From: a virus
Length of the DNA stretch: 64,000 bases
IMG/VR virus record: IMGVR_UViG_3300019751_000003
Span: 1-64,000 of that record
Strand: one strand, 5' to 3'
Notes under the pieces: generated by a model
What the model was told of the DNA's origin: nothing
Database searches by the model: none
Seen by the model: the letters and a program-made list of their open reading frames with translations, nothing else
Made by a program: the position numbers and the translations under genes
Part shown: positions 29,086 through 45,849 of the stretch, in pieces
How the letters are laid out: every line of letters begins with the position of its first letter
How positions within the stretch are numbered: position 1 is the stretch's first letter

Positions 29086-31731
29086 TTAATAGAAAAGGCC
29101 AAGGATTTGATTAAGAGGTGCGAATGTACCTGTTAACTTGTATGTACCACCTTTATATAGGAATACAATACCCTCGTTTGGTACTATCTTATCTCTTCCA
29201 CCAATACTCTTTAATCTTTCTAATTCCATTTTTAATTTTGTAATCTTTTTTGGGTCACCTGATTTCTGAACATCTTTGATTACTTTATCTAATTGTTTCT
29301 GAATATCACGAAGTGATTTATCAGGATTAACAGTAAGTGCTGATGACATAAATGAAAGTACTTCTGCACCAAGACCTAAAAATATATCTTCGAATGGTTT
29401 CATATTATTCTTAGCCATTTTCGAGTGGTCTATTTTATCTGTCTTGTTTGCCCAATCTCTTGTTTTAGAATCAGAAATGTTTTTCTTATCTAATCTAAAT
29501 GATTTATCATAAAACGCCCATCGTTTTACTAACCCCATTTTAGTTTTATTATCTAATGTGGTTGGTGAGTTTTTATCTACAAAATCACTCCACCATGCTT
29601 GATGGTAGTCTGCAACTCCATTAGAATCTTTTAGTTTAAATTCTTTTTGAAGTTTACTTACCTTCGATGAATAAATTGATTTCTTGTTTGATAAATCTTG
29701 ACTCCTCGGTATCTTAACAACTGGTGGTCCTTGGATAGTATAATTATCTTGAACATCGGCATTTACCTGCTTTATCATACCCGCTAATACTTTAGCGTCT
29801 GATGTATCAGCACCGATTGCTTTTCCATCTTCATTATATTCCATCGTTCCATGAAAGACTAATAGAGGTTGACCATATGGTATTACATTTACTGACTCCG
29901 GCCATATAACTTCAAGGTTCATAAATTTTGAGCCATCCTTGAATATTTTACTTCTTTGCGCATCGGAGAGTTTTGAAATGGCTGATTCTAAATCTCTCAT
30001 TGCGAAATTATACGCATCGGTCAACCCACCCCTATTAGCAAACTTATCGGCGACACCTTTGATGTCTAATGCGTTAAGTCCTCTGTCCTTGAGGTGTCCT
30101 TTATTTCTGGCAGCGATAATACCTCTATCTTTACGATATGATATAGCCAGAGCTTGTCCATCTGTTTTTTCTCTTGCAAATTCTAATGTACCTTCAAGAG
30201 CTTTTGATATGATTATTTTTAAATCACCAAATGTCAAATTTATTTCTGTATCGAATGGATGATTCATATGTCCATATGCTCCACCTTCCATAATCATACT
30301 TTCATTAAATATATTTTGTGTTCCTGCATTTCCAACATAGGACACAAAGTATAATCGTTGTTTACCAACTTTTTTAGAAAGTACTTGTCCTTCTTTACCT
30401 GAGTTGTCAAGTTCTTTTTTTGCATTATCAGGTTTTAAGTAAAAGTTTCTCTTTTGTTTCATTAAAGATGCTTTTTTACTTTTTGATTTCTTTTTTGGTT
30501 TTTTCTTTTCGTCAATGGTTGGTTCGTTATCATTTCCACACTCGTGACAGATATATAAGTCATCACCACCATCTTCTATTTTCCAACTATGGTCACATTC
30601 ATCACATTCAATCTTATCACCTACGATAGCTTCAAATCGTTTTAAATCTTCTTTTAGTGAAGCGGATTTACCTTGTTGTTTTTTTGTGAGGGTTTTAGGA
30701 GTAAGGTTATCTAAATCTTTTGGTTCAGCGAATTTAACAAATTCCATACCCAATCTCAATGCAACTTTCTTAATATGTTTTGCCCATTTCCTATAAGCAG
30801 GTCTACCAGTTATATCTTTACCATATCTCTTTTTCTGTCCATCCATAGTATCACCACTTGGAAAGAATGATACTTGATATCTACCAGGTCCATTTGGATA
30901 ATGGGTGTTAAACGATTCCATTGAGTCTTCGTCCATTAAGTAGTTTACAATATCCCAACCCAAGTCCCCAACAACTTCTTCCATCTCTGCTTTATAAGAT
31001 TTCATATTACCATAGAATGCACCTGGCCCATCATCTACAATACCTTTACCACTTGTTGGAATTTGTGAAGCTTCATTGATTAAACTATTAATGTTAATTG
31101 ATTGTAAAAAAGATTCCATTACGGATTCTACTGAGATTAATCTACCTGATACTAAGTTAAATATTTTTGGATTGAATTTACCATATACTTTTTTAAAGAA
31201 TGATTTTCTTTGAGAATCACTCCCTCTCGACATTCCCTTACGAACATCAGTTCCACTTATATTACCAAATGATGGTGATACATAAACATACCCTTTATCA
31301 TCGTACCCAGTATCAACACTTCCCTTTTTGTAAGGTAAGAAGTATTTTGAATAACCTGGACTTGTAAGTCTGCTTGCATCTTTTTTACCAACAACAGTAA
31401 TATATGCCGTTGTTTTAGATGGAAATTTTTCTATTACTTCTTTTGGTGAATATGGGTTTTTTACTTGAACAATTTTATTAGAAGGGATTTTAAACATCGT
31501 AGTCATAACTTCTCTTTTTTCTCTGAAGTTAAATGGATGTCTTGGTCCACCTTGTTTGTTTGATGTACCTATGAATACATTATTCTTACCAAACTTACTG
31601 ACAAGATGTTCGTAAACTTTTGCGTGTCCAGAATGGAAGGGTTGAAATCTACCTGAGTAAACTACTACCTCTTTTTTTATATCTTCACTCAGTATAGAGT
31701 CTACTACCCAATTTGTTAAAGTCTTTCCCAT
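29086..31731 (-). CDS. Cytidylyltransferase-like / zinc ribbon / KTDG-ligase fusion protein, 881 aa
   Basis: Residues 20-190 form an HxGH-type nucleotidyltransferase (VVVYSGRFQPFHSGHAKVY, His33-His36; ISGTDVR 158-164), like NMN adenylyl- or cytidylyl-transferases. Residues 376-398 are a Cys4 zinc ribbon (CDEC...CHEC). Residues 480-881 have covalent nucleotidyltransferase motifs of RNA/DNA ligases: KTDG (Lys522), FMNLEVI (603-609), EGIVFLY (853-859), TYKLTG (Lys865). Sites SLINE220|A and IFNE477|S separate the parts, and the leader ends SILSE|D. This looks like a gp21-processed cargo protein carrying two enzymes. Substrates are unknown; nucleic-acid repair or NAD-linked chemistry are options. 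Confidence 0.7.
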   Translation of the reverse strand: MGKTLTNWVVDSILSEDIKKEVVVYSGRFQPFHSGHAKVYEHLVSKFGKNNVFIGTSNKQGGPRHPFNFREKREVMTTMFKIPSNKIVQVKNPYSPKEVIEKFPSKTTAYITVVGKKDASRLTSPGYSKYFLPYKKGSVDTGYDDKGYVYVSPSFGNISGTDVRKGMSRGSDSQRKSFFKKVYGKFNPKIFNLVSGRLISVESVMESFLQSININSLINEASQIPTSGKGIVDDGPGAFYGNMKSYKAEMEEVVGDLGWDIVNYLMDEDSMESFNTHYPNGPGRYQVSFFPSGDTMDGQKKRYGKDITGRPAYRKWAKHIKKVALRLGMEFVKFAEPKDLDNLTPKTLTKKQQGKSASLKEDLKRFEAIVGDKIECDECDHSWKIEDGGDDLYICHECGNDNEPTIDEKKKPKKKSKSKKASLMKQKRNFYLKPDNAKKELDNSGKEGQVLSKKVGKQRLYFVSYVGNAGTQNIFNESMIMEGGAYGHMNHPFDTEINLTFGDLKIIISKALEGTLEFAREKTDGQALAISYRKDRGIIAARNKGHLKDRGLNALDIKGVADKFANRGGLTDAYNFAMRDLESAISKLSDAQRSKIFKDGSKFMNLEVIWPESVNVIPYGQPLLVFHGTMEYNEDGKAIGADTSDAKVLAGMIKQVNADVQDNYTIQGPPVVKIPRSQDLSNKKSIYSSKVSKLQKEFKLKDSNGVADYHQAWWSDFVDKNSPTTLDNKTKMGLVKRWAFYDKSFRLDKKNISDSKTRDWANKTDKIDHSKMAKNNMKPFEDIFLGLGAEVLSFMSSALTVNPDKSLRDIQKQLDKVIKDVQKSGDPKKITKLKMELERLKSIGGRDKIVPNEGIVFLYKGGTYKLTGTFAPLNQILGLFY

Positions 31732-31768: not shown

Positions 31769-34700
31769 TTATCCACAATACAAGTATCCATATACATTTT
31801 CCATTCTACCATTAGAATCCCATGAAGAGGATATCATACACTTTGCAACTGTATATGAGCTATGTGATTGTCTTTCTTCGTAAACTGGACTTGAACCACT
31901 AAATGAAGTTACCACCCACTCTGATGGTTGTTTCATTAGATAACCAGGCGTATCTGATGAACATAGTAAATCCCCTTTACTTACATCACCACCTTGGTTA
32001 CACAATTTAAAACCAGGCAAAACAAATGAACCTGATTCATCCTGCGTTACACTATCCCCAATAGAAGCCACTTTCCAAATTTCTTTAGAACCAGTTTGAC
32101 TTACAGGAATATAATCACCAAATGAATCTTTTCGTGATGCGGAGTAATATTCCTCAGGTGGGATAAGTTCGTCTGAATCACTTTCGTTATTTTTTCCTAA
32201 TGCAAATCCGTCAAATCTCGGAACTAAATTTAACTCAAGTTTTTCCCACAGAATTCCTACAACATTACTATCTTTTGCAGTTGTGACTTTTTGAAGTTCA
32301 TTATTTAGACCCAATTTAACTAAATCACCAGAATTAATATCTGATGTTATATCTTTTTTGTATTGGTGTCCAAGTGTTGTTTCAAATCCAGAAGGTGCAC
32401 CTGGCGAGGGTGATAATTTTGAAAGTGTGTTGTGTGAAAGTATTCCATTTGAAACATAGTTGTGAACTATATCTAATTCATAATTCCAAACTTCAACTTC
32501 TTCGTCAAAAGTTTCTACACTTTTTATTTTATCAATGAATATTTTTTCACCATCGACAACATATAACTCACCACCAATTCCAAGTTCATCTATTGCAATT
32601 TCAGAATTTGGATAATCGGGATGATATAGTAAATGTGAGTTAGAACATTTTAATTCTTTGTCTGATTCTGTTTTTATCAAACTCCACCCTTTAACTTTAT
32701 TAGTAGTAATTTCATCAATAGGTGACCATCCCCATTCTTTAGTTTCAAAGTTAAATACTTTTATTATATCATCGTCTTTGGTATCTTCTATATTTATCTC
32801 ACCTCTTTTAGTAATTACTTTAGTACCAGGTAATACACAACTATAACTTCCACCCGATGAAATCGCAGATGAAATAGAAGTCAATTCAGTATCAATATCA
32901 TCTTCAAGGTCTGTAAATCTTGTAGCAGCATTTTTAATAAGTCCATCAGCATCTACAAATCTTGGTACTTTTAGAATTAAACCAGTTGAGTCTACACCAA
33001 ACATGGTATTAAATGCTTTTGTTGTACTACCAGACTTGAAGGTTGCGGTATCTTCAAGAATTCCTTTAAATGTTGCAGTACCATCTTGTGCAATTTTAAA
33101 TTCAGGTGCTGAAATATATCCTGAAGAACCTAATGTAAAATCACCATAAGTATCATTTGCGGTTGCCGTTCCTTTTACTCCAATATGTGATGAACCAATT
33201 GTCCACCCACCAATAGAACCAGCTCCTGCGGTTACTGTACCATCAATGGATAATGTAGTTCCATCAAATTCAAGTTTTGGTGAACTTGTACCACCCATTT
33301 TAAATGTTCCTTTATCAAGACTTATTATAGAACCATTGGTAGTACTTAAATTGTTAGACCTAATTGTTCCTGTCTTAATTGAATCACCGCTAATTGTAGT
33401 AGAACCACCACCACCCGCGAACTCGGTAACTTTAATATAATCTATAAGTGTCTTACCTGCTTTATTAGAATAGTTTACAAGAATCATTGGTGCAAATGCG
33501 TTTGTTGTAGTCCAAACTTGACCTGGGTCATCAATGTTTGGGTGAAGGCCAGAAGTTTGGTAATATCCTGCAGTACCCTTAAAGTAACCTTTGTATATTA
33601 CCCATTCACCAACCGTTGGTTTTGCATTACTTGCAACAAAGTAGTGTTGAGAACCAAAATTACCTCCCGTACCAGTAGTATTACCTGCAGCATTAATTGC
33701 GGTAAGTTTCGTACTACCATCTGTATGTAATGAAGATGAGAATGCGGTTATACCTGCGTAAATTCCACCATCTCCTGAAGCTTCAGCTCTCTGTACTCTG
33801 ACTTCCATTTCATATAATGAGTTTGGATTAAATGGCATAACAGTATTTGAACTAAGCCAGGCCTGGTCGTCACTACCAGCATTATTACCAACTATAACTA
33901 CTGGCCCAAAGAATTGTCCGTAGTCTGTATCTGTAATTGAGTTGGCCGAAGTATTCGTTCCTGAATATAAATAAAATCCTACACCTGAACCATCTAATTT
34001 TGGATTATTTGATTGTTCTATATATGTGGGTCTTATTTCTCGTGTTGCTGGGTTAAAGTCTTCAAAGTATAATGCTTGTGGTTGATTTCTACCTACAAGT
34101 TCAACATCACCAGTAATTTTAATATTACCATTAGAACCACTAATCGATGTATTACCTCTACCAAAGAAAAATTCTTGTACTGCGAAGTCAACACCTGAAC
34201 CTGATATCAATAATGTTTTAGCCGTATTGTCCCATGCGAAATACCCTGCACCCAATGGACCTGAACCACTTCCTAAGTAGAAGTTACCATCATTATCCAT
34301 AAACGCGCTCATGTCATCGATTGTAGCTGCGGAAGTTAATGTATTATGATATCCAAGAACTTCACTATTCATTACCAACCCAGCTGGCGCAGGGAATGGA
34401 ACTGCGGATAATGTATCACCTAAGAAACTAAAGTCTTGATTGTCTGCACCTTGAGCACCTGTACTTCCTTTTGCACCTGTCGAACCTGCCGAACCTGCCG
34501 CACCCTTAGCACCTTGACCACCTTGAGCACCAGCACCACCTTGAGCACCCTTACCACCTTGAGCACCTGCCGAACCTTGTTTAGATTTAGCAAACGACAT
34601 AGTTTTTGCAATTATTACTTTTTGTGAACCACTACCACTAATTGCGTTAATTTCTAATGAACCAGAATCTTGTGTCAGACCCGTTATGGTAAAGTGATTA

Positions 34701-37700
34701 TGTCCGTTTGTTGTTGCGTTACCTGATGACCCACCTGCGGATTGTAGTTGACTAAATGAAACTCCATTTGAACCTGTACCTGCATACTTGTATGAATTAG
34801 TTTTATTGGTAATACCTTCAAATATAATCATATCAGTAATTGCACCATTCAATCCACCTGTTGCAATCGAACCTGCTGCGTTTGCAGGAATTGTATGTGA
34901 TTCATTTGTAAGGAACCCTGTTACCGCGTCAGAACCATCTGCACCTGGCGTTCCATCCGAACCACCTTCTACTTTAAATATTGTAATTGAATCAGATAAA
35001 TCACTTGCATTGTTTGCTACCTCAATTGTAATTGGAAATTGATTTTTATTGGTAACTTTCCCTGCTGCATTGGATGCACCATTGTCAAATGTTAATGTAA
35101 ATGTTTGAGTACCTGAACCATTTGTTATTGTACCACTCAATGCTGGGGTTGTAATAGGCCCACCACCACCTTTAGTAATTGTAATATCACCTGTATCAAT
35201 TGTATGTGCTAAGTTCTGTTGAACTACACTCATGGTAATTGTAGTAGGAGTTGCAGATGTATCACTTGAATCGTCAAATGCAAAAGTTTGAGAATCCGAA
35301 AGTAAAGTTAGTGACCTTGCCGTTGAACCATCCAAACCATCATCACCCTGTCTTGCTACTGCAACCGACATAGTTTTTGCAATTTGAGTACTTGAACTTA
35401 CTGCCGTTAATACAATAGAACCACTAAATGGTGAAGTTGTATTTGTAATGGTTACTGGATTAGTACCACTCGTTGTTATATGTGCTGATTTAGTAACAGA
35501 TATACTATAATCACTTGTACTATCAGTCACACCCTCAAATACTATCATCTCAGTACTTGCGCCTGCGAATGAAATAACTTCATCAGATGAACTTAATGGA
35601 AGTGTATGAGAATCGTTTGTTAAAAGCGCTGAAACTGCGGATGTACCATCTGAACCTGGCGAACCATCTGAACCACCTTCGACTTTAAATATTTTTACTG
35701 AATCAGTTAACCCATCTTTGGTACAAGAAATTTCAACAGGTAAAAATCCTTTAGTTTGTTGCATCCCACCTGCGGATTGTCCACCGACCCACTTTAAACT
35801 ACCACTTACAATACCAGTTCCATTTGAAACATCACTATTATCAAAAGCAAATCCCGTTACTACCGAACCACCATTTCTTGTAATTGTAATATCACTTGTT
35901 CCAATAGTACCTGTAAGATTTTGTTGTTGGAAACTAAATATAATATTAGATGGGGTTGCTGAAGTATCGGATGAATCATCGAAAGCAAATACAGGCGAAT
36001 CTAAACTACCAATTAGTAATTTAGCGGATGTACCAGGATTACCATCTGCACCTTGTTTAGTTCGTGTAAGTGACATTGTTTTAATCAATCGTGTACTTGA
36101 ACTAACTGCGTTAATTGTTAGTGACCCCGAATCAGCATTTAGGCCTGTTATACTAAAATGATTATGACCTGCCGTTGTTGCATTACCTGACGAACCACCT
36201 GCTGATTGTAAATGTGAAAATGTTGTTCCTGTCGATGCCGTAGCAGAGAATAAGTAATTAGATGATTTGTCTGTAACACCTTCGAATACTTTTACATCAG
36301 TTACACCACCTGCGAATGATGCAATACTACCACCAGAATCTGCAGGGAAGTTATGATTCTCGTTTGTTAAGAAAGCGGTAACTGCATCCGTTCCGTCTGT
36401 ACCAGATGTTCCACCTTCTACTTTAAATACTTTTATACTATCTGTAAATGTGTCTTTACTTACTTCAATTGTAATTGGTAAATGATTTTTAGATACGACT
36501 TTACCTGCCGCCGGACTTCCCCCATTTGCAAATAAAATACTACCACTTAATAAACCAGAACCATCACTTACATTACCACCTAATGATGGTGTTGTGATTG
36601 TTCCACCACCATTCTTAGTAATGGTAACATTACCTGTTGAAAGTGCCCCACTTAAATTTTGTTGATTGATAATAAACGATATTGAACTTGGTGTTGCAGT
36701 AGTATCTGCAGATGTATCAAAAGCGTAAACTTGAGAATCAACAGTAACTTGTAATGTTTTAGCATTAGAACCTGCGAGACCTGCAGTACCTTGTTTTGAT
36801 TTAACCAAGGACATTGTTTTTGCAAGTTGTGTACTTGAACTTACTGCAGTAATTACTACTGACCCACTATCGTGTCCTGCTGCTGATATTGTTAATACAT
36901 TTCCATTTGTACCACCCAATGTTGATGTTACTCCTAAACTACCTGTTCTACTATAAGAATAGTTTTCAGTTACATCTACAACACCTTCAAAAACAACCAT
37001 TTCTGAAGTTGCGTCATCAAAACTAACAACTGTTCCATCTGATTGTGCAGCGAAGGTATGTGCTTCATTGGTTAAGAATGCCGTTACTGCATCTTGACCA
37101 TCAGAACCTGGTGAACCATCTGAACCACCCTCTACCTTAAATAATTTTATTGTATCGGTTAATCCGTTTTTAGTTGCTGATATTGTAATTGGGAAATGTG
37201 ACTTAGTTCCTTCTATACCACCTGCATTTAGATTATTTCCAAACACAATACTACCACTTGCTATACCACTATACTTTCCATCAGTAGCACTTACATTGGT
37301 ATTATTGAAAGCAAAGTTTGTAATAGCATCATCACCTTGAGTTGTGATTGTAACATCACTACTTCCAATTGCGGCGTTTAAGTTTTGTTGGTTAAATGAG
37401 AATATAACATTTGCAGGTGTAGCTGAAGAATCACTTGAGTCGTCAAATGCCATCACTTGAGAATCTAAACTTGCTACTAATGTTTTAGCATTAGAACCTG
37501 CGAGTCCATCTGCACCTTTTGCACCTGCAGCACCTGCGGTTGATTTTGCAAGTGACATAGTTTTAACTAATTGAGTACTTGCACTAACTGCGGTTATTGT
37601 TAAAGAACCACTATCATGTCCCATTGAGGTTATACTAAATAAATTATCCCCAAAACCATGTCCATTTTGGGTATGGCCAAGTCCCACCGAACCTGTACCA

Positions 37701-40700
37701 CTAAATTTATAGTTTGATGTACTGTCGGTGATACCTTCAAAGACAACCATGTTAGTAACACCTTGAGTGAAGTCTGATATTGTTCCTGATGAGTTTGCAG
37801 GGAATGTATGTGATTCGTTAGTTAAGAATGCCGTTACTGCATCTTGACCATCTGTACCTGGCGTTCCGTCTGCACCACCTTGTACTTTAAATATTGTTGT
37901 ACTATCAGTTATATCATCTTTAGTAACCGATAGTGTTAATGGTAAATCAGTTTTATTTAATGACAATCCACTAAAAGATAAACTACCACTTTGTTGTCCT
38001 GACCCTGATACTATTCCCGAAGCCCCACCTAATGATGGTGTTGATATTGATGAACCACCTGCTTTAGTGATTGTGATATCACTTCCTGCGATTGTAGCTG
38101 ATAGGTTTTGTTGACTGATTGTAAAGTTAATTACATTCGGAGTTGCTGAAGTATCAGTAGAATCATCAAATGCGTACACCGATGAGTCGGTTGTTATTTG
38201 TAATGACTTTGCAGTTGCAGATTCCGTTACGGCGTTAATTGCTTCTTCTACTGATTGAAATCCACCGTCTGGTGCAGTTATTTGAATAGTACCTTTTACT
38301 ACTAAGTTAGTACCATCCCATGTAAATTTATCACCTAATGAGAATTTTGAATCTGAACCTAAAAAGAATCCTGTGTTTGTATTACCATGTGTTCCGACAC
38401 CTGTAAACAATTTGGAATCTTGCATTTTGATTCCACCAATAGAACCTGTGTTTGCTATTATACCACCTTGAAGGAATACATTATCAGTTGCCAATCCAAA
38501 TCCTGGATTTGAATTACCGAATACATAAGATGAGTTAGCCAACCCACTTAAGTCACCCAATCGAACTTTTAATCCAACATCATATAATCCACTACCCGTC
38601 CTTTCAACAATATCCATAAACGGAGTATTGGTGTCTCGTGGATTTGCATTCATTTTAATGTAACCACTACCACTCAGTCCAGTTGATACTATCACCTGAC
38701 CTTCATCGTATGGTTGAGCTGCTGATGCTAAATCACCAACAAAATCACCTTGTGACCCACTTCCATATCCTCTTGTTACATATAGTCTACCATGTACTTC
38801 GTCTGCGCCAGAATTATCACCATCAAGTGATGCCGAGTTTACTAAAATATATTCTGTTTGGAATCCTGTACTATCTACTTTTTTAGCTAATAGAATTTCA
38901 CCAACAGTAAACCCACTTGCATTCTTAACTGACATTGTTGTGTCATTTGCAGTAATGTTTGACCCTGTTAATGTTGTTGCGTTAGTAACCCATAGTTGAC
39001 CACCAACTGCGTTTACAGATTCTTTCTCAAATGTAGTTGTTCTTAGAGTACCTCTAATTCTTACATTTTCAAACTCTGCAGTTCCATTACCTTCTGAAGA
39101 TATTTTCCATCCTTTAAAATTACTTGCGAAATCTTTTGTCTGTAAAATACCTTCTGGTTTCATTATAAGATTACCACCCTCAATGGATGATGTTGTAATG
39201 TCCCATCCACCAATAGATGCCGATTGGAATATAGCAAATCCATCAGCGTCAATAGATGACGATGCGTTTTGTCTTGTAGAAGGGTTTCCACTAATTTGTG
39301 CAGGAGTACGAATGTTGTTTGCAGTAACTGCCCCTAAGATAGTTACACCATCTGTAATCGTACCACCTTCTATTAATACTTTTGATGCGGTTATATCACC
39401 TTGAGCTTTTAATCTTAATGAATTGTCTGATGACCTAATCTCATCTGAAACAACCTCAAATCCTGCAATAGATGCAGATGCGAATCTTGCAAAACCATCT
39501 TGGTCAATTGACGATGATGCGTTTGCTTTAGTTGATGGTGCACCATTAACTACGGCAGGAGTCCTAATTTGATTTACTGTAAGTGATGATTTTATTGTTG
39601 CGTTTGTACCAATTATCAATTGACCTGTGTTTGGGTCTAAGTGAAAGTCAGATGAACTAATTTCAATCTTACCATCCGAGCCACTCATAAATTGACTACC
39701 CGGCGTACCTATAAAAAACTTCTCTGCTTTTACATCTAATAAACCACTACCTGATGTTGTGAATATAAGGTGACTCTTATCATTCTCAGATACGAACTCA
39801 AATCCGACACCTTCCATTAAGTCACTACCAACTACCAAGTTACCACTACCAGAATATATTAAAAATCCACCTGGCCCTTTTCCTTCGGATGCGGATGTAA
39901 ATCCTTTATATCCAACAGACCTTAAGAATCCACTACTTGCTCCACCGATTTCAATACCACTACCTAATGCGTTTGATATAAAAATAGAACCTGTTATTAA
40001 AGAACCCTTACCACCAATAAAAGTAGTAGAACCTGGAAATACCACATCTTCTATTATAATGAAGGTTTCCGATGGTTCGTTTTTACTATTTAAGAATTCT
40101 ATTCTAATAGTCTTGGGGTCACCAATATGTTGAGATGGTATTGGTATTGTAAATATGAAGTCTGAACCATCAGTTGGTTCTATATATCGTGTTGTTGCAA
40201 TTGTTTCAAAATCAGTACCAAGTCCTTGTGATTTAACAGAGGTTCTTAGCAATTCAATTTTACCTGCAACTGGGTCGGCACTTGTGATTGTAAATGTAGA
40301 TACTGTTTGTAGGTTTTGTGATGTTCCTACCGATGCCGATGAAAAATATTCTATAAAAGTAGGAATGGTATCTGCGTCACTAAATCTGTACTGGTGTTCT
40401 TGACTACCTGTTATAGGGTCTTTTATTTGTAATATGTTACTACTTGATACACTTAAGATAGATGATGTAAAACTTGTTGGTTGTTCAACACCCGTTTGTC
40501 TTGGGAAAATAGTGGTCGATGATAAGTCTAATCTTACCTCACCACCAATCATCATACTATTAAATCCACTACCAGCCGTTTTGGTTAGAATTACATCATC
40601 ACCAAAAGTTGACCTTTGATACTTGACACTATGTGTATCTGTTGTTAATGTTAGGGTTGCGTTTCTACCCTGACCCAATTCATCTTCAGTTTCTTGATTT

Positions 40701-41263
40701 AATTCAAATGTACTAAATGGTTGTAAACTTGCAGATATTGATGCGAGTGGTAAAAGCTTTTCATTGAAAATAATATCGGAAGAAGACCCCTGATTTACTC
40801 TTACAGGAATATCTCTATTCCACCTTACTGCGTTTCCATTTCTAGCCGTACCTATAATTGTTACTTTTGCAATTCCAGATGCGGTATTTTCTGAAGGGTC
40901 TGTTCTATCTGTATAAACCCAAATACTAACTATCTTACTTCCATCTCGGTCCTTTCCATTCATTATTTCAAAATAGATTGGATTTCCGTTTGAATCAAGA
41001 ACCTCTATTTGTATTTCAGAGTTTCTTTTAAGTGAGTTAGAACCCGTTAACCTTATTGTGTTTTTACCTGACCCAAAGAATTCGGGCACTTCCGTTACAT
41101 TAAAAAATGTTGAGTTTGGATTGGTGTCTTCTACAACAGGTGGTTTCGCAGGTGAAAATCGTGGGGTCGGTCCAGACCTTGAATCTCTTAAACTCGCACT
41201 TGTTCTTGGTGCGAATTGTTTGTTTAGATTTTTCTTACCTCTTCTTCTGAATGGTATTGCCAT
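31769..41263 (-). CDS. Giant tail fibre/tail tip protein with mini-intein, 3164 aa
   Basis: N-terminal 120 residues are basic (RRRGKKNLNKQF) then beta-rich. Residues ~560-720 carry two ASSSID(Q/A)DGFA repeats. Residues ~1016-2220 are five tandem ~240-residue repeats marked by FKVEGG and AVTAFLTNESHTF. A collagen-like GAQGGKGAQGG stretch spans ~2221-2274. A full mini-intein occupies 2809-2945. The last 220 residues (PGFKLCNQGGDVSKGDLLCSS, ENVYGYLYCG) match C-terminal domains of marine phage fibres. It follows gp46/47 with a 19-base gap and a motif 21 bases upstream. Host recognition or tail-tip assembly is inferred. Confidence 0.8.
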   Translation of the reverse strand: MAIPFRRRGKKNLNKQFAPRTSASLRDSRSGPTPRFSPAKPPVVEDTNPNSTFFNVTEVPEFFGSGKNTIRLTGSNSLKRNSEIQIEVLDSNGNPIYFEIMNGKDRDGSKIVSIWVYTDRTDPSENTASGIAKVTIIGTARNGNAVRWNRDIPVRVNQGSSSDIIFNEKLLPLASISASLQPFSTFELNQETEDELGQGRNATLTLTTDTHSVKYQRSTFGDDVILTKTAGSGFNSMMIGGEVRLDLSSTTIFPRQTGVEQPTSFTSSILSVSSSNILQIKDPITGSQEHQYRFSDADTIPTFIEYFSSASVGTSQNLQTVSTFTITSADPVAGKIELLRTSVKSQGLGTDFETIATTRYIEPTDGSDFIFTIPIPSQHIGDPKTIRIEFLNSKNEPSETFIIIEDVVFPGSTTFIGGKGSLITGSIFISNALGSGIEIGGASSGFLRSVGYKGFTSASEGKGPGGFLIYSGSGNLVVGSDLMEGVGFEFVSENDKSHLIFTTSGSGLLDVKAEKFFIGTPGSQFMSGSDGKIEISSSDFHLDPNTGQLIIGTNATIKSSLTVNQIRTPAVVNGAPSTKANASSSIDQDGFARFASASIAGFEVVSDEIRSSDNSLRLKAQGDITASKVLIEGGTITDGVTILGAVTANNIRTPAQISGNPSTRQNASSSIDADGFAIFQSASIGGWDITTSSIEGGNLIMKPEGILQTKDFASNFKGWKISSEGNGTAEFENVRIRGTLRTTTFEKESVNAVGGQLWVTNATTLTGSNITANDTTMSVKNASGFTVGEILLAKKVDSTGFQTEYILVNSASLDGDNSGADEVHGRLYVTRGYGSGSQGDFVGDLASAAQPYDEGQVIVSTGLSGSGYIKMNANPRDTNTPFMDIVERTGSGLYDVGLKVRLGDLSGLANSSYVFGNSNPGFGLATDNVFLQGGIIANTGSIGGIKMQDSKLFTGVGTHGNTNTGFFLGSDSKFSLGDKFTWDGTNLVVKGTIQITAPDGGFQSVEEAINAVTESATAKSLQITTDSSVYAFDDSTDTSATPNVINFTISQQNLSATIAGSDITITKAGGSSISTPSLGGASGIVSGSGQQSGSLSFSGLSLNKTDLPLTLSVTKDDITDSTTIFKVQGGADGTPGTDGQDAVTAFLTNESHTFPANSSGTISDFTQGVTNMVVFEGITDSTSNYKFSGTGSVGLGHTQNGHGFGDNLFSITSMGHDSGSLTITAVSASTQLVKTMSLAKSTAGAAGAKGADGLAGSNAKTLVASLDSQVMAFDDSSDSSATPANVIFSFNQQNLNAAIGSSDVTITTQGDDAITNFAFNNTNVSATDGKYSGIASGSIVFGNNLNAGGIEGTKSHFPITISATKNGLTDTIKLFKVEGGSDGSPGSDGQDAVTAFLTNEAHTFAAQSDGTVVSFDDATSEMVVFEGVVDVTENYSYSRTGSLGVTSTLGGTNGNVLTISAAGHDSGSVVITAVSSSTQLAKTMSLVKSKQGTAGLAGSNAKTLQVTVDSQVYAFDTSADTTATPSSISFIINQQNLSGALSTGNVTITKNGGGTITTPSLGGNVSDGSGLLSGSILFANGGSPAAGKVVSKNHLPITIEVSKDTFTDSIKVFKVEGGTSGTDGTDAVTAFLTNENHNFPADSGGSIASFAGGVTDVKVFEGVTDKSSNYLFSATASTGTTFSHLQSAGGSSGNATTAGHNHFSITGLNADSGSLTINAVSSSTRLIKTMSLTRTKQGADGNPGTSAKLLIGSLDSPVFAFDDSSDTSATPSNIIFSFQQQNLTGTIGTSDITITRNGGSVVTGFAFDNSDVSNGTGIVSGSLKWVGGQSAGGMQQTKGFLPVEISCTKDGLTDSVKIFKVEGGSDGSPGSDGTSAVSALLTNDSHTLPLSSSDEVISFAGASTEMIVFEGVTDSTSDYSISVTKSAHITTSGTNPVTITNTTSPFSGSIVLTAVSSSTQIAKTMSVAVARQGDDGLDGSTARSLTLLSDSQTFAFDDSSDTSATPTTITMSVVQQNLAHTIDTGDITITKGGGGPITTPALSGTITNGSGTQTFTLTFDNGASNAAGKVTNKNQFPITIEVANNASDLSDSITIFKVEGGSDGTPGADGSDAVTGFLTNESHTIPANAAGSIATGGLNGAITDMIIFEGITNKTNSYKYAGTGSNGVSFSQLQSAGGSSGNATTNGHNHFTITGLTQDSGSLEINAISGSGSQKVIIAKTMSFAKSKQGSAGAQGGKGAQGGAGAQGGQGAKGAAGSAGSTGAKGSTGAQGADNQDFSFLGDTLSAVPFPAPAGLVMNSEVLGYHNTLTSAATIDDMSAFMDNDGNFYLGSGSGPLGAGYFAWDNTAKTLLISGSGVDFAVQEFFFGRGNTSISGSNGNIKITGDVELVGRNQPQALYFEDFNPATREIRPTYIEQSNNPKLDGSGVGFYLYSGTNTSANSITDTDYGQFFGPVVIVGNNAGSDDQAWLSSNTVMPFNPNSLYEMEVRVQRAEASGDGGIYAGITAFSSSLHTDGSTKLTAINAAGNTTGTGGNFGSQHYFVASNAKPTVGEWVIYKGYFKGTAGYYQTSGLHPNIDDPGQVWTTTNAFAPMILVNYSNKAGKTLIDYIKVTEFAGGGGSTTISGDSIKTGTIRSNNLSTTNGSIISLDKGTFKMGGTSSPKLEFDGTTLSIDGTVTAGAGSIGGWTIGSSHIGVKGTATANDTYGDFTLGSSGYISAPEFKIAQDGTATFKGILEDTATFKSGSTTKAFNTMFGVDSTGLILKVPRFVDADGLIKNAATRFTDLEDDIDTELTSISSAISSGGSYSCVLPGTKVITKRGEINIEDTKDDDIIKVFNFETKEWGWSPIDEITTNKVKGWSLIKTESDKELKCSNSHLLYHPDYPNSEIAIDELGIGGELYVVDGEKIFIDKIKSVETFDEEVEVWNYELDIVHNYVSNGILSHNTLSKLSPSPGAPSGFETTLGHQYKKDITSDINSGDLVKLGLNNELQKVTTAKDSNVVGILWEKLELNLVPRFDGFALGKNNESDSDELIPPEEYYSASRKDSFGDYIPVSQTGSKEIWKVASIGDSVTQDESGSFVLPGFKLCNQGGDVSKGDLLCSSDTPGYLMKQPSEWVVTSFSGSSPVYEERQSHSSYTVAKCMISSSWDSNGRMENVYGYLYCG
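32429..32839 (-). other. Complete mini-intein (Hint domain) inside the 3164-aa tail protein
   Basis: 137 residues run from Cys2809 (CVLPGTKVITKRGEINIEDT) to Asn2945 (LDIVHNYVSNGILSHN), followed by Thr2946. Cys1, a block B S-x-x-H (SNSH, 66-69 of the domain), the block F strand, the penultimate His and the terminal Asn are all present. There is no homing endonuclease. Splicing would join GGSYS to TLSKL. It could be a true splicing intein or a bacterial-intein-like domain that mostly cleaves. Confidence 0.85.
34430..38220 (-). repeat. Five ~700-745-bp coding repeats plus collagen tract
   Basis: Units begin near 38215, 37495, 36770, 36027 and 35330. Each encodes (A/S)K-L....DS.-.AFDDSSDTSATP, a QQNL strand, FKVEGG(S/T)DG, (D/S)AV(T/S)(A/G)(F/L)LTN(E/D).H and TMS. 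They end in a collagen-like tract at about 34435-34580. Copies have diverged, so the duplications are old. Confidence 0.85.
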
Positions 41264-45414: not shown

Positions 45415-45849
45415 TTATTTCGAGAATGCAAAGAAATTTTGTGAAGGTTTTTCATCTATCCATTCTTGTGGGATTTCCTTCTTTGCCCATTTGAACCCAT
45501 TCTTCTCACACCATTCAGCGTAAGTAGTTTTAGAACCTTTGTATATTTTACCATTCGGCGATTGTAATACAAACCTTAAATCCATCTCTGGATTTTGTTC
45601 TTTTATTAATAAATGTTTTTTTCTATCTTCAGGTAAAAACCACCCCTTGGATTCTATATAGATTCCATTTGGTAATTTAAAATCTGGTTTGTAAGTATGA
45701 TGTGTTGCTGGTATTGTATATGATACTTCGTGTTGTTCATACTCACCATCAATACCTTGAGCTTGAAGTTGTTCATCAATTCGTGTCTCAAGGCCGGACT
45801 TATGTCCTTTTTGTTTTTGGATGTGACTCCAATTGCCTTTTTTATTCAT
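45415..45849 (-). CDS. T7-type endonuclease I (Holliday junction resolvase), 144 aa
   Basis: Close to T7 gp3 in order and spacing: KSGLETRIDEQL (Glu21), PATHHTYKPDFKLPNGIYIESKG (Asp56, Glu66, Lys68), DRKKHLLIKEQNPEMDLR, KTTYAEWCEKNGFKWA. These four residues match the catalytic set of T7 endonuclease I. It resolves branched DNA and can cut four-way junctions before packaging. T4 uses the unrelated gp49 for this, so its presence in a T4-like genome is notable. Confidence 0.92.
   Translation of the reverse strand: MNKKGNWSHIQKQKGHKSGLETRIDEQLQAQGIDGEYEQHEVSYTIPATHHTYKPDFKLPNGIYIESKGWFLPEDRKKHLLIKEQNPEMDLRFVLQSPNGKIYKGSKTTYAEWCEKNGFKWAKKEIPQEWIDEKPSQNFFAFSK

What the first reader, a model, noticed from the sequence alone, without database searches (positions are those of the whole stretch)
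32429..32839. Full mini-intein inside a giant tail protein
The 137-residue Hint domain has Cys1, S-x-x-H, penultimate His, terminal Asn and +1 Thr, so all splicing residues are present, and there is no endonuclease. Inteins mostly sit in conserved enzyme active sites; one in a fibre near its C-terminal domain could ligate, cleave or diversify the fibre tip. Bacterial-intein-like domains do occur in surface and phage proteins.
Basis: partly seen in the sequence, partly recalled or inferred. Interest (0 to 1): 0.76.

Follow-up and report, generated by a model that had tools for sequence, protein, structure and literature searches.

The report
Self-processing Hint cassette in fibre tip
A T4-like virus carries a small, probably self-cutting protein domain between the shaft and the end cap of its giant tail fibre; close relatives lack it at the same place, and it resembles cleaving "bacterial intein-like" domains more than a true splicing intein.

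Summary
Window 32429-32839, minus strand, encodes a complete 137-residue Hint domain (aa 2809-2945 of a 3164-aa fibre-like protein). Both NCBIfam intein models pass their cut-offs; solved inteins and a BIL domain match. "Full mini-intein" is only partly right. In 13 related virus contigs Cys1, the block-B His and the His-Asn end never vary, but the +1 residue does: Thr here and in three close contigs, otherwise Val, Met, Ala, Gly or Ile. Block F carries Asn, as in the solved BIL domain 2LWY. These are marks of an A-type bacterial intein-like (BIL) domain, expected mainly to cleave.

The Hint is an optional cassette: phages with nearly the same fibre and neighbouring gene have it or lack it at the same linker. 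It always precedes a ~200-aa C-terminal domain, which AlphaFold2 (pLDDT 85) places in the gpD/phi29-gp12 C-terminal-chaperone fold (Z 10). In gp12 that domain is cut off after assembly; the Hint ends 10-19 residues before the equivalent junction.

Best reading: a self-cleaving module that separates fibre from cap, with splicing as the main rival. Processing itself is untested. New variant of a known kind.

The parts
31769..41263 (-). fibre-like protein gene, 3164 aa, that carries the Hint
   Evidence: single open frame; collagen-like stretch and C-terminal fold shared with phage tail/fibre proteins
32840..41263 (-). fibre body, aa 1-2808 (N-terminal side of the Hint), variable between relatives
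34445..34582 (-). collagen-like stretch, aa 2228-2273
   Evidence: Pfam PF01391, E 0.0016, below Pfam's cut-off
32429..32839 (-). Hint domain, aa 2809-2945, 137 aa
32837..32839 (-). Cys1 codon (aa 2809), N-terminal nucleophile, invariant in the family
32633..32635 (-). block-B His69 codon (aa 2877), invariant
32483..32485 (-). block-F Asn119 codon (aa 2927), invariant; Asn also in BIL 2LWY, Asp in the Spl DnaX intein
32429..32434 (-). His136-Asn137 codons (aa 2944-2945), invariant
32426..32428 (-). +1 Thr codon (aa 2946), not conserved in relatives
32375..32428 (-). linker between Hint and C-terminal domain, aa 2946-2963, variable
31772..32374 (-). C-terminal domain (cap), aa 2964-3164, gpD / phi29 gp12 C-terminal-chaperone fold

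Best explanation
An A-type BIL-like Hint autoprocessing domain that occurs as an optional cassette in phage fibre tips. It lies in the linker between the fibre shaft and a C-terminal cap with the fold of the phi29 gp12 assembly chaperone. Inferred working: the cap helps the chains of the fibre to assemble; the Hint then cleaves at its own ends (thioester at Cys1, cyclisation of Asn137), so that cap and Hint are separated from the shaft, much as gp12 sheds its chaperone domain by its own chemistry. A minor spliced product, with shaft and cap rejoined, is expected from what is reported for A-type BIL domains. Shown here: the domain, the invariant catalytic residues, the variable +1 residue, the presence/absence alleles, and the predicted fold of the cap. 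Inferred: that it is active, that cleavage outweighs splicing, and that the cap is a chaperone.
For: Hint identity. Cys1, block-B His, His136 and Asn137 are invariant in 11 aligned sequences that are 56-89% identical to the window; dN/dS is 0.03-0.30 in most measurable pairs, so the domain is kept by selection. +1 is T/V/M/A/G/I. Block-F Asn as in BIL 2LWY. Reviews state that BILs lack the +1 nucleophile and that type A end in His-Asn and give mostly cleavage (PMC4031507, PMC7664689). The cap model (pLDDT 85) aligns with phi29 gp12 692-854 (3gqh, Z 10.2, rmsd 3.1 over 111 aa), and mature gp12* is modelled to 691 (PMC6542822). gp12 692 falls on about model residue 6, just before the conserved GHxY motif, and the Hint ends 10-19 residues before that motif.
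Against: No protein data. Hint-less alleles keep the same cap with no visible replacement for the cut, so shedding the cap is either not essential or done by the cap itself. The gpD fold is also that of capsid decoration proteins, so the fold alone does not show a chaperone. The window's own copy has Thr+1 and could splice.
Confidence: 0.5

Rival explanations
1. It splices: either as a class 1 mini-intein through Thr+1 (this phage) or, in the family, by the A-type BIL route in which the freed amino group of the C-terminal piece attacks the Cys1 thioester. The mature fibre then equals the Hint-less allele and the Hint is a tolerated passenger.
For: All class 1 residues are present in the window. 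Both ends of the Hint are invariant, as splicing needs. Hint-less alleles with the shaft joined directly to the cap exist in close relatives (L055, L052). Type A BILs can splice (PMC4031507).
Against: +1 is Val, Met, Ala, Gly or Ile in most relatives, so standard transesterification is impossible there; cleavage products are reported to dominate for BILs.
Confidence: 0.3
2. The Hint performs one useful cut only (for example release of the cap at its C-terminal end, or an N-terminal thioester that hands the fibre to another molecule), not both.
For: Hint relatives such as Hedgehog use only the first step (PMC7664689).
Against: Cys1 and His-Asn are equally invariant, which suggests that both ends matter.
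Confidence: 0.1
3. The Hint is inert as an enzyme and serves as a structural domain of the fibre tip or as a stretch of shared DNA that promotes tip swapping.
For: Hint codons are more alike than those of the C-terminal part in some pairs (win/L005 0.85 v 0.66, p 0.0009; L005/L006 0.88 v 0.69, p 0.0002); tips are exchanged between near-identical phages. A similar role was suggested for the phiCbK TerL intein (PMC3556154).
Against: An inert domain would not be expected to keep all catalytic residues. The codon pattern is not general: L010/L011 lean the other way and L006/L050 show no difference; the L006/L050 exchange begins well before the Hint.
Confidence: 0.1

Closest known systems
A-type bacterial intein-like (BIL) domains, e.g. 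the BIL domain of PDB 2LWY
   Same: Hint domain of the same size (137 v 138 aa), block-B His, block-F Asn, His-Asn end, non-nucleophilic +1 in most members, lies in a variable surface-type protein, no endonuclease
   Different: in phage fibres at a fixed place before a gp12-like cap, present or absent as alleles; a subset (the window's) has Thr+1; low sequence identity to 2LWY
Class 1 mini-inteins, e.g. Spl DnaX (PDB 7CFV), gp41-1 (6QAZ)
   Same: Hint domain with Cys1, block-B His, His-Asn; Thr+1 in the window
   Different: +1 not conserved in the family, block-F Asn instead of the Asp of 7CFV, host site is a variable linker and not a conserved enzyme site
phi29 gp12 C-terminal autocleaved domain (Peptidase_G2, PDB 3GQH/3SUC)
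   Same: predicted fold of the cap and its place at the end of a phage adhesin; the known cut lies at the same junction
   Different: no sequence match to Peptidase_G2; a Hint is placed before the cap; autocleavage of the cap itself is not shown
phiCbK-like TerL intein (PMC3556154)
   Same: phage intein at a boundary where the N-terminal part of the host protein has been exchanged
   Different: 341-aa intein in an enzyme, Pro at position 1, conserved Ser+1

Membership tests
Hint superfamily | Hint sequence blocks recognised by curated models | tested here: met
   TIGR01445 and TIGR01443 above cut-off for the window; all 11 members match; PDB Hint domains found
Class 1 intein (splicing) | Cys/Ser1, block-B His, terminal Asn | tested here: met
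   invariant in 11 sequences
Class 1 intein (splicing) | conserved Cys/Ser/Thr at +1 | tested here: not met
   Thr in the window and L002-L004 only; V, M, A, G, I in the rest
Class 1 intein (splicing) | insertion in a conserved site of a conserved host protein | tested here: not met
   sits in a variable linker of a variable fibre
Class 1 intein (splicing) | demonstrated excision with ligation | not testable with these tools
   needs expression
A-type BIL domain | C-terminal His-Asn | tested here: met
   definition PMC4031507
A-type BIL domain | no nucleophilic +1 residue | tested here: inconclusive
   met in L005-L011, L031, L050, L051; not in the window and L002-L004, which have Thr
A-type BIL domain | located in variable regions of non-conserved proteins | tested here: met
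   definition PMC7765530
A-type BIL domain | groups with A-type BIL domains in a family tree | not tested
   no set of BIL sequences at hand; only 2LWY compared
A-type BIL domain | mainly autocleavage, some splicing | not testable with these tools
   needs expression
B-type BIL domain | no intein-like block G / His-Asn | tested here: not met
   His-Asn invariant
Peptidase_G2 / phi29 gp12 C-terminal domain (for the cap) | sequence match to the family | tested here: not met
   Pfam scan of 19 caps lists no Peptidase_G2; no gp12 match among PDB sequences
Peptidase_G2 / phi29 gp12 C-terminal domain (for the cap) | fold | tested here: met
   3gqh and 3suc Z 10.2, Foldseek probability 0.69-0.87; shared with gpD-type decoration proteins, so not specific
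Peptidase_G2 / phi29 gp12 C-terminal domain (for the cap) | autoproteolysis after trimerisation | not testable with these tools
   needs expression

The most novel reading that the evidence does not exclude
Phages have adopted a BIL-type Hint as a portable maturation device for adhesins: it replaces or doubles the autocleavage by which gp12-type caps are shed, or ligates shaft and tip after translation, and it occurs together with the cap in otherwise unrelated phage proteins.
Probability: 0.4. Interest if true: 0.75.

Novelty: new variant of a known kind. Interest (0 to 1): 0.55.

Why it matters
BIL domains have been suspected of creating variability in surface proteins (PMC7765530), but their native roles are poorly known. 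Here is a small, tractable case: related fibres with and without the Hint in close relatives, at a junction where another phage adhesin is known to be cut. If active, it would be a self-release (or self-ligation) device for fibre tips, and a source of small Hint domains whose +1 residue is naturally free.

Tried and rejected
AlphaFold2 of Hint plus cap together gave pLDDT 40 and was not used. tblastn of the tip against 50,697 phage records: no match at E 0.01; with the L010 tip at E 10, mostly terminase, RNR and portal proteins at the Hint part, and weak cap matches in Vibrio and Colwellia phage proteins. No relative of the Hint in the 84,980 prokaryote genomes by the pattern search used. B-type BIL rejected (His-Asn present). 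Class 3 intein not pursued, since Cys1 is present. The Keap1/Kelch list in the single-sequence PDB search covers only the last 35 residues and is nearly absent from the profile search, so I read it as chance. Homing endonuclease: none inside the 137 aa; among the neighbours scanned with PHROGs the only endonuclease is phrog_945 at 45415-45849, which is T4-like DNA metabolism rather than homing as far as the name tells. The idea that Hint DNA drives tip swapping has mixed codon evidence. Papers: no report of a BIL/Hint domain in a phage tail fibre was found in the open library, which is not proof of absence. The upstream rows for L010 run past the start of that gene and were not used.

Full report
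Observation. The reverse complement of 32429-32839 translates without a stop into a 137-residue Hint domain, aa 2809-2945 of a 3164-aa protein (31769-41263, minus strand). NCBIfam's N- and C-terminal intein models both pass their cut-offs, Pfam's intein model matches all 11 family members, and a profile of the family finds solved Hint domains, among them a mini-intein (7cfv) and a BIL domain (2lwy). The window is part of an 83,394-base virus record with T4-like terminase, portal, major head and baseplate-wedge genes. The Hint occurs once in it.

Family. Thirteen other virus contigs encode the same Hint; none was found in 84,980 prokaryote genomes. In 11 aligned sequences Cys1, block-B His69, block-F Asn119, His126, His136 and Asn137 do not vary. 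dN/dS is well below 1 in most pairs (0.03-0.30; L050/L051 is the exception at about 0.8 with small counts). The residue after the Hint does vary: Thr (window, L002-L004), Val (L005), Met (L006-L008), Ala (L009, L011, L031), Gly (L010), Ile (L050, L051). Standard protein splicing usually needs Cys, Ser or Thr there. BIL domains lack this nucleophile; type A keep the His-Asn end, form the Cys1 thioester and cyclise Asn, mostly giving cleavage and some splicing (PMC4031507, PMC7664689). Block-F Asn is also found in 2LWY, where the Spl DnaX intein has Asp. The family therefore reads as A-type BIL-like, although the window copy taken alone has every class 1 residue.

Optional cassette. Contigs L005, L051 and L055 share 94-98% identity in the neighbouring SbcC-like protein, and their fibres are 82-86% identical over two thousand residues or more; L005 and L051 have the Hint, L055 does not. 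L005 and L055 align through the shaft almost to the Hint, then L055 passes straight into the cap. L050 (Hint) and L052 (no Hint) are a second such pair: 88% in a shaft stretch, 85% in the cap. On a tree of caps the label changes four times (3-4 in bootstrap trees; well-supported branches force only one). L006 and L050 show that tips are exchanged: 99% in the SbcC-like protein, 94% in the shaft to residue about 1895, then different tips. In several pairs Hint codons are more alike than those of the C-terminal part (L005/L006 0.88 v 0.69, p 0.0002), as if the Hint had been shared more recently than its surroundings, but other pairs do not show it and the pairs are not independent.

The cap. Every Hint whose downstream part is held is followed by the same C-terminal domain, which also ends many fibre-like proteins without a Hint. 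A model from 30 sequences has pLDDT 85. Its best matches are phage gpD-type decoration proteins and the C-terminal domain of phi29 gp12 (3gqh and 3suc, Z 10.2); among predicted viral structures, the Colwellia phage 9A tail protein (E 9e-9) and a Vibrio phage tail fibre protein (E 5e-6). Mature gp12* is modelled to residue 691 (PMC6542822; [quoted passage not shown]). Residue 692 of gp12 falls on about model residue 6, directly before the conserved GHxY motif; the Hint ends 10-19 residues before that motif. No Peptidase_G2 sequence match exists.

Interpretation. The Hint sits where another phage adhesin is known to be cut. With invariant catalytic ends and a free +1 residue, the most likely action is self-cleavage at both junctions, separating shaft and cap, with some rejoining. 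Full splicing back to the Hint-less form is the main rival, and fits the presence/absence alleles. Both are inferred; sequence cannot decide between them.

A second context. L010 is a short contig with an endolysin gene and a 484-aa protein that is mostly Hint plus cap. It and its relatives L009, L011 and L031 have Gly or Ala at +1. The Hint-cap pair thus occurs in proteins with quite different front parts.

Noticed in passing
L010:4538-5992: 484-aa protein that is largely Hint plus cap, near an endolysin gene (phrog_465), in a contig whose neighbouring genes do not match PHROGs; a different setting for the same Hint-cap pair.
   Followed up: partly
L019, from 5001: 386-aa phage protein ending in a Hint-like stretch that begins CFVAGTKIATPDGEINIEDV but ends ...MYFANGLAVEGRNNK without His-Asn; perhaps a B-type-like domain at a protein's C-terminus.
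   Followed up: no
L020 from 5001 and L021 from 482: Intein-like insert beginning CFAKGTKIQSDKGEINIEDV in a clamp-loader-like ATPase of a virus contig.
   Followed up: no
L074 and L076 (contigs of L006 and L050): Two phages with a 99% identical SbcC-like protein and a fibre 94% identical to residue about 1895 carry different fibre tips: recent tip exchange.
   Followed up: partly
window 31772-32374 and relatives: A near-invariant GHxY motif at the start of the cap lies at the structural equivalent of the phi29 gp12 cut site; it could be a cut site of its own.
   Followed up: no
window 29086-31731(-): 881-aa protein beside the fibre gene with an N-terminal cytidylyltransferase-like domain (phrog_395).
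   Followed up: no
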